Source: Muribaculum sp. (GTDB lineage: Bacteria; Bacteroidota; Bacteroidia; Bacteroidales; Muribaculaceae). Taken from it: a stretch of DNA of 57,452 bases. A model generated the notes under the pieces. The model worked only from the letters and a program-made list of their open reading frames with translations. It did no database searches and was not told the DNA's origin. The stretch is from the NCBI GenBank assembly GCA_023666965.1, contig JAMPAZ010000001.1, positions 783,632 to 841,083 of the forward strand. The letters run 5' to 3'. This document shows, piece by piece, positions 32,285 to 36,209 of this stretch. Each line of letters begins with the position of its first letter. The stretch's first letter is position 1. A program made the position numbers and the translations under genes.

Positions 32285-32320
32285 TAGGTATATTTGTGCG
32301 ATAAAGTGCAAATATACCTA
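32285..32320 (+). promoter_or_regulatory. Palindrome overlapping a -7 box, possible operator
   Basis: TAGGTATATTTG (32285-32296) and CAAATATACCTA (32309-32320) are perfect inverted copies 12 bp apart. The first arm contains TATATTTG (32289-32296), a consensus -7 box pointing at the secreted-protein locus 43 bp on. The second arm covers the expected transcription start. A bound dimer would block the promoter. The palindrome also makes a -7 box on the other strand. Confidence 0.5.
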
Positions 32321-32338: not shown

Positions 32339-32968
32339 ATGATTAAGCCAATCATATTATTTGCCACGCTGATTGTGTCAATAATGACCATGAATGCACA
32401 AATCGGCTACCAAGTGGCCGTAATGGACCAGGCCACAGGAAAGCCGAAAGCCAATAAAGAAGTATCAGTCCAGGTAGAACTGATGAATAATGATGGAGGT
32501 GTAGTCGCATCCACCGTACAAACAGCCACGACTAATGACTTCGGAGTCGTATCTGTTCAAGTAGGGAGCTCTTCGACATTCGACAATATAGACTGGTCGA
32601 AACTCCCGCTATGGGTATCGGCCACAGTCGACGGAGTAAATGTCGGAAAGACACAGGTGCTGACAGTTCCCGTGGCCGAATATACCAAGCACTATGGCAA
32701 ACTTACCCCGCAACTTCTATCCTCAAAGAAATGGACTATGTCCGACGGATACGGCGGGGCCGGCAGCTTAACCTTTACCTCCAACGGCAACATGACACGA
32801 ACGTATTCCTCAGAGGGGGGAACTGAGTCAGTATCCGGCTCATACGAGATAGTGGGCGACATGATTATTCAGAGGTACTCAGGAGAAGCAAACAATGGAG
32901 CCGCCTACATATACATGCCAGAGCGCAATGCTATATTTGCCATATATGAAGCATATTTTTACAAATAA
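32339..32968 (+). CDS. Secreted two-domain protein, paralogue 1
   Basis: Product of 209 residues. Signal peptide to MNAQ. Residues about 20-118 (IGYQVAVMDQATGKPKANK, TNDFGVVSVQVG, WVSATVDGVNVGKTQVLTVP) match the beta-sandwich that begins many Bacteroidota surface proteins, usually written FxYQAVxRDxxG ... SVPYALYAK. Residues about 125-209 look like a small lipocalin-type barrel (KWTMSDGYG, SLTFTSNGN, SGSYEIVGDMI). Its first domain is almost identical to that of the gene at 35333. Function unknown. First gene of a four-gene unit. Confidence 0.75.
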   Translation: MIKPIILFATLIVSIMTMNAQIGYQVAVMDQATGKPKANKEVSVQVELMNNDGGVVASTVQTATTNDFGVVSVQVGSSSTFDNIDWSKLPLWVSATVDGVNVGKTQVLTVPVAEYTKHYGKLTPQLLSSKKWTMSDGYGGAGSLTFTSNGNMTRTYSSEGGTESVSGSYEIVGDMIIQRYSGEANNGAAYIYMPERNAIFAIYEAYFYK

Positions 32969-32972
32969 TTAT

Positions 32973-33443
32973 ATGAATATACGAAAGTTATTTGCCGCTA
33001 TCGGAATTTTGGCCATTGCTATGCCGGTATGCGCAGACGAGACTCCAACAGCGTTGATAATAAGCATGACAGACGGCAACAGGCAGACAGTGGAATTGTC
33101 TGAATGCCCGGTGGTAAAAATAGAAGGAGAGAACCTCGTTGTCAAGGGTTCCGGGACAGAAATCAATCTCGAACTTAACAAAGTCAAAGACTTTACATAC
33201 GGCTCGGCGAGCGGAATCACCGTACCCGGGTCATCGGACACTTTTGTCCGCCAAGGCGATAATCTCATCGTCAGTTCCGACGGGCAACCGTTAGACGTGG
33301 TGCTTACATCGGTAAACGGTATCATCCTGAAAGCACAGACAGTAGCCTCCGGAGAGTCGCTGACTTTGTCGTTGACCGACTTAGTGACTGGAGTTTATAT
33401 AGTTACAGTCAACGGTGTGTCATCTAAAATTGTTAAGCGATGA
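32973..33443 (+). CDS. Secreted protein with C-terminal sorting-type tail
   Basis: Product of 156 residues from ATG 32973, which starts the signal peptide (MNIRKLFAAIGILAIAMPVCA). The C-terminus LVTGVYIVTVNGVSSKIVKR is the same class of sorting tail as at 244-309. In between is a short beta-rich part with repeated DGxxxxVxL/VVL strands. It starts 4 bp after the preceding stop and its stop overlaps the next start (ATGA). No enzymatic motif seen. Confidence 0.75.
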   Translation: MNIRKLFAAIGILAIAMPVCADETPTALIISMTDGNRQTVELSECPVVKIEGENLVVKGSGTEINLELNKVKDFTYGSASGITVPGSSDTFVRQGDNLIVSSDGQPLDVVLTSVNGIILKAQTVASGESLTLSLTDLVTGVYIVTVNGVSSKIVKR

Positions 33444-35329
33444 AAAGTTTGATATACCTACTGACGGCACTTACCGCCATATCTGCAACCGCCGAAAACA
33501 AGACCATGTTCATACACTATGGAGGCGAAAATGTCGACGCAATATTTTTCTCGGAAATAGACAGTATCCGCTATAGTGACATCGGAATTGACAGTACAGC
33601 TTTAGGGAAGATCCGCATTCAGGAGATTTGGACTCCGGACAGCGTATATCGCTACGACATAGCGGAGATAGACAGCGTGACATTCCAATCGCCGGCCACG
33701 ATTGCCAAGCCCGGCGCGATTGACTTGTCGAGAGAACTCTCAACCTACGTGACAGGCGACGACTACACCGACGGAATAACTCTGAGGCTCGCGGGCAACA
33801 CTCCGTCAAGCTTGCTTCCCAAAACGGGGAATTATCTCTATCAATTGGAGCCAAGCGACGTGCTGGCCGCCGGATTTGCAGGACACGTGCTGACGGTGGA
33901 GAGCGACAACGGCGGTTGGGCAGTGAAATGCGAATCGGCCGAATTTGACGAGATATTCGACCAACTGGCGTGGGTCGGCGAAAACGAATTCATAGCCGGC
34001 GAGGGTGAGGTTGAGACCGACCCGGAATCGGAAGAGCAATCTTCGCCGAGCAGAGCCATACAGCGCGTATTGGCATTGCCGACGCTTGCATCAAGGCTTA
34101 AATGTCCCGACTTAATATCCGGTGCGCTTATTATGACTGATGAGCTTAAGGATATTCCCGCCGGACCGAAACAAGCGCAAATAGTGGGCAAAATAGCAGT
34201 GACACCCGTGGTTAGTTGCTTGTCAGGAGCATATATTATACGCAATGCCCGTGGCGACATCAAGAAAGGCCGACGGATGAAATCCAACGCCAGAGTGAAG
34301 GTCAAAGGCTATGCGGAAGGACGCTACAATATCGGCGATAAACGCACGATCGGAGCCTCCAGGACACCGTTAAAATTCACGCTACCAATGGGTCTTGGAC
34401 AGACTTACATCCTATCATATTTGGGCACCATGACTTTGGAAGGGAAGATGGGGTTGGACTATGCATTTGAGTCAGAGTACCGCTCAACCGCTACCACCGT
34501 AGTTAATTACGACAATACAGCCGGCATCCCCGAAGCCACAATGGAGTACACACATAAAGTTCTTAACCCGGAAACCAGAACCCTTGACGCATCTTTTGAA
34601 GGCTCGTTGTCGCTGACCGGATCGCTGACTTTCACCATCACGCAGAGCGGCGATTCGCTTAAATCGATTAGCAACATTTTCTCTTACGGTTCATCGCTTA
34701 AAGGTGATGCACTTTTCCTGACTTCGCAGATAGAAGATGCGAAAGAGAACAATACGCTTTATCGAACGATTACCTCCACCGGAGTCAAAGCGACATCGAT
34801 CGAAAGCATAACCGCCTCGATAAAGTATTCAGGCTGGACTCTTAAACTGAAGGGGGCGATTACCCCATCGGCCTCCGAAACTTTCTATGTAGTTCCAAAG
34901 TTCTCCTCTCCTGCATGGGACAAAACCACAAAGTCAATGACATACGCAGTGGAAGGCTCTCCAATGAAGTTTTCTTCGGCATCACTCGGCACTGCAGTAA
35001 AGTCGGACGACGACGGAACATTCTCATGGATGGCATCCGGAAAGACATGGCCTTCTGAATGTCGGACAGCATTCGTAGGACAAGCCGACTACGACCCGAC
35101 GAGCGAAGATAAGGTTTACCCCACAGTCACTCTGCCGTCCGGCGAAAGGATTCTCGCCGCTCCTGAATACCCAATCGTATCTAACGGACTATTCCCTACC
35201 ATTTCTGTCCAGGAATCGCAAGGAGTCCGCGTCACATCCGGCACTCCCATCATCGGTTCGGCCGCCGACGGAACCACTTCGGTGCATATCGGCAACTTAT
35301 TCCCCTACAACTCAGAAGACAAAAAATAA
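33440..35329 (+). CDS. Large secreted beta-rich protein of unknown function
   Basis: Product of 629 residues. Signal peptide to ATAEN. Residues about 20-80 carry two copies of a strand motif ending FFSEIDSIRYS and DIAEIDSVTFQ, common at the start of Bacteroidota exported proteins. A hinge rich in Glu/Ser (EVETDPESEEQSSPS) lies near residue 200. The remainder is beta-strand rich and Thr/Ser rich, suggesting a repetitive adhesin-like body; no catalytic motif is visible. It is translationally coupled to the gene before (ATGA) and followed 3 bp later by the second paralogue. Confidence 0.7.
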   Translation: MKSLIYLLTALTAISATAENKTMFIHYGGENVDAIFFSEIDSIRYSDIGIDSTALGKIRIQEIWTPDSVYRYDIAEIDSVTFQSPATIAKPGAIDLSRELSTYVTGDDYTDGITLRLAGNTPSSLLPKTGNYLYQLEPSDVLAAGFAGHVLTVESDNGGWAVKCESAEFDEIFDQLAWVGENEFIAGEGEVETDPESEEQSSPSRAIQRVLALPTLASRLKCPDLISGALIMTDELKDIPAGPKQAQIVGKIAVTPVVSCLSGAYIIRNARGDIKKGRRMKSNARVKVKGYAEGRYNIGDKRTIGASRTPLKFTLPMGLGQTYILSYLGTMTLEGKMGLDYAFESEYRSTATTVVNYDNTAGIPEATMEYTHKVLNPETRTLDASFEGSLSLTGSLTFTITQSGDSLKSISNIFSYGSSLKGDALFLTSQIEDAKENNTLYRTITSTGVKATSIESITASIKYSGWTLKLKGAITPSASETFYVVPKFSSPAWDKTTKSMTYAVEGSPMKFSSASLGTAVKSDDDGTFSWMASGKTWPSECRTAFVGQADYDPTSEDKVYPTVTLPSGERILAAPEYPIVSNGLFPTISVQESQGVRVTSGTPIIGSAADGTTSVHIGNLFPYNSEDKK

Positions 35330-35332
35330 ATT

Positions 35333-35971
35333 ATGAAAAAGAAAGCATTAATTTTAGCTATAATCGCAAGCGCCGCGGTAGGACTTAACGCTCAAATCGG
35401 CTATCAAGTGGCTGTAATGGATCAAGCCACAGGCAAGCCTAAAGCCAACAAAGAAGTATCAGTCAAGGTAGAACTGACAGATAATGCCGGGTCGGTCATC
35501 GCATCAACCGAACAATCAGCCATGACGAACGACTTCGGAGTGGTGTCGGTGCAGGTAGGCGGCTCTTCGACATTCGACAATATGGATTGGAGAAAACTTC
35601 CGCTATGGGTATCGGCCACAGTCGACGGAGTAAACGTCGGCAAGACACAGGTGCTGACAGTTCCAGTGGCTGAACACTCTAAGCATTACGGACTTCTCAC
35701 GCCTCAAATCCTCGCGGGGAAGTGGACATACACGGGAAATGGCTCAAAGCAGGAATATAGTTTCTCTGCATCGGGTGGATATACATATACTCGATATGAG
35801 AAAACTGAATCCGGAGGATGGTTTGTAGATTCTAAAGCAAGCGGCTCTTACGAAATTGACGGCAACATGGTGTATATGTTCTCTTCGAGCGAAGCTACGA
35901 GGCCTATGCGCTGGTCGCCAAGCCGCAACGTGCTGACCCCGGCAGACGGCGGTGGCATCTATACTAAGTGA
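35333..35971 (+). CDS. Secreted two-domain protein, paralogue 2
   Basis: Product of 212 residues. Signal peptide to GLNAQ. The first domain (about 20-118) is near-identical in protein and very close in DNA to that of 32339-32968, so duplication or gene conversion was recent. The second domain is diverged but keeps the pattern (GKWTYTGNG, SFSASGGYTYTRY, ASGSYEIDGNMVYMF). The pair flank two unrelated genes. A weak terminator follows. Confidence 0.75.
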   Translation: MKKKALILAIIASAAVGLNAQIGYQVAVMDQATGKPKANKEVSVKVELTDNAGSVIASTEQSAMTNDFGVVSVQVGGSSTFDNMDWRKLPLWVSATVDGVNVGKTQVLTVPVAEHSKHYGLLTPQILAGKWTYTGNGSKQEYSFSASGGYTYTRYEKTESGGWFVDSKASGSYEIDGNMVYMFSSSEATRPMRWSPSRNVLTPADGGGIYTK

Positions 35972-35995
35972 CATTTCATGCCGGACAAACATAAC

Positions 35996-36030
35996 AAAGG
36001 GCCAGTCATCGCGACTCGCCCTTTATTATT
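35996..36030 (+). terminator. Probable terminator of the secreted-protein locus
   Basis: AAAGGGC (35996-36002) pairs with GCCCTTT (36018-36024), followed by ATTATT. The rest of the gap 35972-36209 has no coding sequence I can support. Confidence 0.5.
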
Positions 36031-36209
36031 AACCTTAAATCTAATACCATGAAAAACACAGTGCAAATATAGTAATTATACCTATAGAACATTTCGAACT
36101 TGCAAAGGTTCAAGGACAAATCTATTTTAACTTTTATTAACCAACTTATCCGCCTAAATTCACTAATTTAGCGTTCAATTAATGAATTGATTCAATAACA
36201 CGTACCATA

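What the first reader, a model, noticed from the sequence alone, without database searches (positions are those of the whole stretch)
32339..35971. Four-gene locus of secreted proteins: candidate undescribed surface system
Two near-identical N-terminal domains head the outer genes, with different lipocalin-like tails. Between them are a protein with a sorting-type tail and a 629-residue beta-rich protein, coupled by ATGA and gaps of only 3-4 bp. All four carry signal peptides, so the unit looks like an assembled extracellular structure: small paired subunits, an anchor and a large body.
Basis: inference. Interest (0 to 1): 0.7.

Follow-up and report, generated by a model that had tools for sequence, protein, structure and literature searches.

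The report
Split secreted-protein operon with swappable tails
A gut Muribaculaceae bacterium carries a four-gene operon in which a tiny protein bearing a type IX secretion tag is tied to a large untagged partner and flanked by two small proteins with a shared head and different tails, which suggests a two-part surface display system that trades its tips.

Summary
In detail: four secreted proteins (A, B, C, D) lie in one tight operon, and A and D share a head but differ in tail. Homologue searches make it more specific. B is a free-standing type IX secretion (T9SS) type A sorting module; C is large and lacks such a tag. Small CTD-ended relatives of B are nearly always followed by a secreted partner: 71 of 77, 45 of 77 overlapping by exactly 4 bp, and 0 of 71 partners with an own tag. 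B and C diverge in step. The close A/D clade was found in 9 of 397 family genomes; in 8 it adjoins B-C, the ninth is cut by a contig end. The A-B-C-D order recurs in another genus (G198, its A incomplete). Within a genome the A/D heads are much alike, tails not; one relative looks like a head-mediated tail swap. Best reading: B serves C's export or anchoring, and A/D are exchangeable-tip accessories. Physical assembly, surface location and ligand are untested; the C model failed. New variant of a known kind.

The parts
32289..32296 (+). TAnnTTTG, like the -7 element of Bacteroidota promoters
   Evidence: Read; the consensus is recalled, not tested
32339..32968 (+). Gene A: signal peptide + constant head + variable tail, 209 aa
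   Evidence: MG/Ig-like head model
32399..32701 (+). Head of A
   Evidence: 85% aa identical to D head over 101 codons; Bdello_MAT_N 16.7 bits, below cut-off 60
32702..32965 (+). Variable tail of A, barrel-like
32973..33443 (+). Gene B: small free-standing T9SS type A sorting module, 156 aa
   Evidence: TIGR04183 25.9 bits, cut-off 23; 28 of 29 aligned homologues match at E 0.01
33258..33437 (+). Type A CTD-like stretch of B (residues 96-155)
   Evidence: Lys152 is one of three invariant residues among 29 B proteins
33440..35329 (+). Gene C: large beta-rich secreted protein without a CTD, 629 aa, overlapping B by ATGA
   Evidence: homologues
33497..34024 (+). N-terminal domain of C (CN), shared by most of B's partners in other genomes
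   Evidence: 54 of 71 partners match the CN profile at E 0.01
35333..35971 (+). Gene D: signal peptide + constant head + variable tail, 212 aa
   Evidence: Bdello_MAT_N 23.9 bits, Lipocalin_4 18.7 bits, both below cut-off
35989..36059 (-). FopS-family sRNA gene, convergent with the operon; its hairpin may also end the operon transcript
   Evidence: Rfam RF04319, 61.1 bits, gathering 56; hairpin z -4.19

Best explanation
The operon makes a two-part T9SS surface protein plus two accessory tips. SHOWN: B is a type A sorting module with little in front of it; C is secreted by sequence but has no sorting module; in B's relatives the two genes are kept adjacent, often overlapping by ATGA, and diverge in step; A and D share a head that is kept alike within each genome while tails vary. 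INFERRED: B and C meet in the periplasm through their N-terminal beta domains, and B either takes C through the T9SS translocon or, once on the surface, holds C there. A and D dock by the constant head onto B-C, and their tails are the variable contact surfaces, swapped or copied by recombination through the heads.
For: B tag and conserved Lys (a Lys at residue -7 to -4 in 77 of 77 small CTD proteins). T9SS PorV over cut-off in 117 of 119 family genomes, own genome included. Pairing: 71 of 77 small CTD ORFs have a downstream ORF of 120 aa or more within -60 to +70 bp, 45 of 77 at exactly -4; controls: 23 of 64 and 4 of 64 for ORFs of 140-240 aa with signal peptide but no CTD, 63 of 180 and 10 of 180 without the signal-peptide filter, 164 of 471 and 25 of 471 for longer ORFs. 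All 71 partners pass my crude signal-peptide rule, against 417 of 785 of all ORFs of 120 aa or more. In regions chosen by B alone: 50 of 56. Own terminal CTD in partners: 0 of 71. Co-divergence of B and CN, r = 0.56, against 0.60 between the two parts of B; within-genome partner shuffles reaching it 0 of 2000. Close A/D genes beside B-C in 8 of 9 genomes. Head homogenisation in some pairs.
Against: No protein with CN and a terminal CTD in one chain appeared among those looked at, so the direct fused counterpart is missing; the fused forms in G029 carry a B-like N domain and dockerin repeats but no CTD. Tight linkage alone gives co-divergence without contact. 15 of 50 partners in B-selected regions do not match CN. 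4 of 77 small CTD ORFs have no downstream partner although the contig does not end there. Pfam's version of the sorting domain is below cut-off for B. Docking of A/D rests on co-occurrence alone. No structure for C. No experiment.
Confidence: 0.45

Rival explanations
1. B is an independent small T9SS cargo merely co-transcribed with C; both are surface proteins for the same task but exported separately, C by another route.
For: B has signal peptide and CTD of its own; linkage explains pairing and co-divergence; 6 of 77 small CTD ORFs lack a downstream partner, 2 of these at a contig end.
Against: The exact -4 overlap in 45 of 77 against 4 of 64 in the signal-peptide control is more than ordinary operon spacing here; 0 of 71 partners have a terminal CTD.
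Confidence: 0.3
2. B is a periplasmic chaperone or co-subunit of C whose C-terminal beta domain only resembles a T9SS CTD; the complex stays periplasmic or at the inner face of the outer membrane.
For: B's score is only just over the NCBIfam cut-off (25.9 vs 23); Pfam's Por_Secre_tail is below its cut-off (19.9 vs 27).
Against: 28 of 29 B proteins match TIGR04183 at E 0.01; PorV is present; the near-C-terminal Lys is invariant in 29.
Confidence: 0.15
3. A and D are recent duplicates with no link to B-C; the shared head is simply young and the tails fast-evolving.
For: A/D heads in the window differ at 17 of 52 fourfold sites and those of G243 at 15 of 53, so homogenisation is not general; draft assemblies may mis-join repeats.
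Against: In G099, genes 1 and 2 have heads with 0 of 39 fourfold differences but signal peptides 52% identical, whereas the G099-G243 orthologue of C differs at 58 of 335; G243 gene 2 has the start of G099 gene 2 and the tail of G099 gene 3. Close A/D genes were seen beside B-C in all 8 genomes where the contig allows a decision.
Confidence: 0.15

Closest known systems
T9SS type A cargo (TIGR04183 / Por_Secre_tail)
   Same: B has signal peptide, C-terminal CTD-like domain and the near-invariant Lys; the translocon gene PorV is in the genome. Role of CTD and Lys: passages of PMC10994853.
   Different: In the cargo described there the CTD ends the passenger it exports; here it is on a separate 156-aa protein and the large partner has none.
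Mosaic adhesive trimer (MAT) proteins of Bdellovibrio (NF053851)
   Same: Conserved ~130-aa beta-rich domain right after the signal peptide, variable tips behind it (passages of PMC10769870); 9 of 10 A/D proteins match at E 0.05, best 1.5e-7.
   Different: Scores of A and D are far below the curated cut-off (16.7 and 23.9 vs 60); no fibre shaft or S74 domain, 209-212 aa only; found beside a T9SS pair.
FISUMP / Lcl_C / FGE-type proteins, including a diversity-generating retroelement target in G072
   Same: Share the CN domain, and where visible the B partner, with window C; in the DGR case the variable region is the C-terminal Lcl_C-like domain.
   Different: Window C has no match to these domains; no template repeat for it in the window and no match to that RT in its genome. 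The B of the DGR case would lie beyond its contig start; the G029 proteins with FGE ends have no separate B.
Domain rearrangement and gene conversion in P. gingivalis surface proteins
   Same: Variable surface genes remade by recombination (passages of PMC5266723).
   Different: Different genes; here a constant head is kept alike while the tails change.

Membership tests
T9SS type A cargo (gene B) | C-terminal type A sorting domain | tested here: met
   TIGR04183 25.9 bits, cut-off 23, residues 96-155 of 156; the Pfam equivalent gives 19.9 vs 27, not met
T9SS type A cargo (gene B) | Near-invariant Lys close to the C-terminus | tested here: met
   Lys152 invariant in 29 B proteins; a Lys in residues -7 to -4 in 77 of 77; importance from passages of PMC10994853
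T9SS type A cargo (gene B) | T9SS in the genome | tested here: met
   PorV NF033710, E 7.1e-148 in G000, over cut-off; other T9SS genes not searched
T9SS type A cargo (gene B) | Exported through the outer membrane and CTD cleaved | not testable with these tools
   Needs experiment
T9SS type A cargo (gene C) | C-terminal sorting domain | tested here: not met
   No NCBIfam family and in Pfam only a chance APC_r at E 1; 0 of 71 partners with a terminal CTD
MAT fibre proteins (genes A, D) | MAT N-terminal domain over the curated cut-off | tested here: not met
   16.7 and 23.9 bits vs 60
MAT fibre proteins (genes A, D) | Trimeric beta-helical shaft | tested here: not met
   209-212 aa, head directly followed by ~85-residue tail; trimerisation itself not testable
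Lipocalin_4 (tails of A, D) | Pfam gathering score | tested here: not met
   D 18.7 vs 22.4; A no match
Lipocalin-like barrel (tail of A) | Fold | tested here: inconclusive
DGR target (gene C) | Variable region with A-specific differences from a template repeat, RT nearby | tested here: not met
   No template repeat for window C within the 57-kb window; no match to the G072 RT in G000

The most novel reading that the evidence does not exclude
T9SS sorting signal in trans: in Muribaculaceae the type A sorting module has been split off as a tiny protein (B) that escorts a separately made, untagged cargo (C) through the T9SS translocon or onto the surface, and the same B-C chassis carries interchangeable recognition parts: lectin-fold ends (once under a diversity-generating retroelement) or separate constant-head, variable-tail proteins (A/D).
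Probability: 0.33. Interest if true: 0.85.

Novelty: new variant of a known kind. Interest (0 to 1): 0.6.

Why it matters
In the T9SS cargo that I saw described, the export tag sits on the same chain. A widespread pair in which tag and cargo are separate genes would widen the set of proteins that can be called T9SS cargo in gut Bacteroidota, since C-type proteins are missed by any search for a CTD. The A/D set adds a natural case of constant-head, variable-tail diversification that looks driven by recombination.

Full report
What is there. The window lies in a Muribaculaceae genome: G110, ranked same family, holds a contig of the length and coordinates that a second collection names as uncultured Muribaculaceae (CANNVE010000020.1). 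Genes A, B, C and D occupy 32339-35971 on the plus strand with gaps of 4 bp, an ATGA overlap and 3 bp. B is 156 aa from ATG 32973. All four start with a signal peptide by eye.

B. B ends in a T9SS type A sorting domain (TIGR04183, 25.9 bits over a cut-off of 23; Pfam's Por_Secre_tail falls short, 19.9 against 27). Of 29 aligned B proteins 28 match that family at E 0.01, and only three columns are invariant, one of them Lys152 near the C-terminus. A near-invariant, functionally important Lys near the C-terminus is described for type A CTDs (passages of PMC10994853). PorV is over its cut-off in 117 of 119 family genomes, G000 included. So B can be a T9SS substrate, but little lies between its signal peptide and its tag (the CTD match starts at residue 96; median start 83 of median length 159 in 77 small CTD proteins).

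C. C has no named domain. Relatives over most of the length are rare: 5 of 397 family genomes (G000, G094, G110, G198, G287). Its N-terminal ~190 residues (CN) recur at the head of many large secreted proteins. The bodies end in different ways: among 29 CN proteins or B partners, Pfam or NCBIfam finds at E 0.01 Lcl_C in 6, FISUMP in 4 and FGE in 2. Three close C proteins differ at one point: the window and G094 share a short C-terminus, G110 has a longer end that looks FISUMP-like by eye (no Pfam match at E 0.5).

B and C belong together. ORFs were called in 40 regions chosen by C, A or B hits, 6 more round A/D or C hits, 40 chosen by B hits alone, L003, L022 and the window. With a CTD profile built from B proteins, 77 distinct ORFs of 240 aa or less end in a CTD; 71 have an ORF of 120 aa or more starting within -60 to +70 bp downstream, 45 at exactly -4. 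All 71 pass my crude signal-peptide rule, which 417 of 785 ORFs of 120 aa or more pass. Controls: of 64 ORFs of 140-240 aa with signal peptide but no CTD 23 have such a neighbour (16 with signal peptide) and 4 at -4; of 180 without that filter 63 and 10; of 471 longer ones 164 and 25; of 13 large CTD proteins 3 and 0. Of the 6 without a partner, 2 are cut by a contig end and 2 have a gene just upstream. In regions chosen by B alone (in part) the count is 50 of 56, and 35 of these 50 partners match CN; in the others 21 of 21, 19 of 21 matching CN. None of the 71 partners has a terminal CTD. In 54 pairs with CN, identities of B and CN correlate at r = 0.56, close to 0.60 for the two parts of B; the nearest relative of B and of CN in other genomes is the same pair in 29 of 54; shuffling partners within the seven multi-copy genomes never reached the observed r in 2000 trials. 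Linkage alone could give this, so it shows a unit, not contact.

Hints at what B does for C. In G029 two large proteins carry dockerin repeats, a B-like N-terminal domain (weak profile match) and CN in one chain, without a CTD. In the window's own genome a distant C paralogue (L129 8281-10218) has no B called beside it and starts with what looks like a lipoprotein signal (motif recalled). Both fit B as the part that gets C out or keeps it on, and neither proves it. No chain with CN plus CTD was found, which counts against a simple split.

A and D. Head and tail are separate modules. Heads are distant relatives of the MAT N-terminal domain of Bdellovibrio (9 of 10 match at E 0.05, best 1.5e-7; the window's two score 16.7 and 23.9 against a cut-off of 60) and of head domains on many larger proteins across the order: 56 of 198 genomes have a match to A. 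The model of A (mean pLDDT 64.7) shows an MG/Ig-like sandwich and a second beta domain. The close clade was found in 9 of 397 family genomes (at most 8 candidates per genome were scored). Order A-B-C-D: window, and G198 where A is a 114-codon piece at the contig start; A-B-C: G432, and G094 where the contig ends after C; B-C followed by two or more A/D genes: G044, G099, G243, G007. G442 is cut by its contig end. In none of these eight does C end in a FISUMP-like domain, by inspection of the ends.

Concerted heads, free tails. Within genomes heads are 85-100% identical in amino acids and tails 27-54%; between genera (window against G094, G198, G044) heads are 57-64%. In G099, genes 1 and 2 have identical heads over 65 codons (0 of 39 fourfold differences) though their signal peptides are 52% identical; the orthologue of C between G099 and G243 differs at 58 of 335 fourfold sites. 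G243 gene 2 has the start of G099 gene 2 (signal peptide 97% nt) and the tail of G099 gene 3 (99% nt). This is what recombination through the head, with exchange or loss of tails, would give. Not all pairs are homogenised: the G243 heads differ at 15 of 53 fourfold sites, G099 genes 1 and 3 at 9 of 53 and the window's at 17 of 52. Caution: these are draft assemblies, and a repeated head is where they break or mis-join.

Site. In the nearest relative, G007, the upstream gene (a regulator by eye) and the downstream response regulator (91% identical) are about 640 bp apart; window 32219 to about 35988 has no counterpart there, and the gap holds three copies of the repeat that follows D. In the window that repeat is a FopS sRNA gene on the minus strand (RF04319); FopS RNAs repress SusC-like transporters in B. 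thetaiotaomicron (abstract and passages of PMC11697453). G007 has its own B-C-A-A elsewhere. So the locus is accessory at this site; gain or loss is not decided from one comparison.

A diversity-generating retroelement on the same chassis. In G072 a CN protein ends in an Lcl_C-like domain (below Pfam's cut-off) that has a template repeat about 1.1 kb downstream; within the repeat the differences fall at template A (20 of 20 in the best 90-bp stretch), with an Avd-like ORF (E 1.4e-7, below cut-off) and an RT (E 3.3e-18, over cut-off) beside it. Its B would lie beyond the contig start. A related RT was found in 1 of 20 genomes tested, so this is one case, and not in the window's genome.

Verdict. 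That B acts for C in trans is the boldest reading left open; I put it at about one in three.

Noticed in passing
window 35989-36059 (minus): FopS-family sRNA gene directly behind D; three copies of the same repeat fill the empty site in G007 (L208), and a second exact match to its 29-base pattern is in the own genome.
   Followed up: partly
L116 116-5171 (G072): Diversity-generating retroelement whose variable region is the C-terminal domain of a CN-family protein, with template repeat, Avd-like ORF and RT.
   Followed up: partly
L112 7604-11071 and L114 6161-9640 (G029): Large chains with dockerin type I repeats, a B-like domain, CN and an FGE-like end; other long CN proteins recur in genus g17.
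   Followed up: partly
L133 459-3510 (G039): One B gene followed by three short CN proteins in a row with different ends; this genome has 12 B matches.
   Followed up: no
L129 8281-10218 (own genome): CN-like paralogue with a lipoprotein-type start and no B neighbour.
   Followed up: partly
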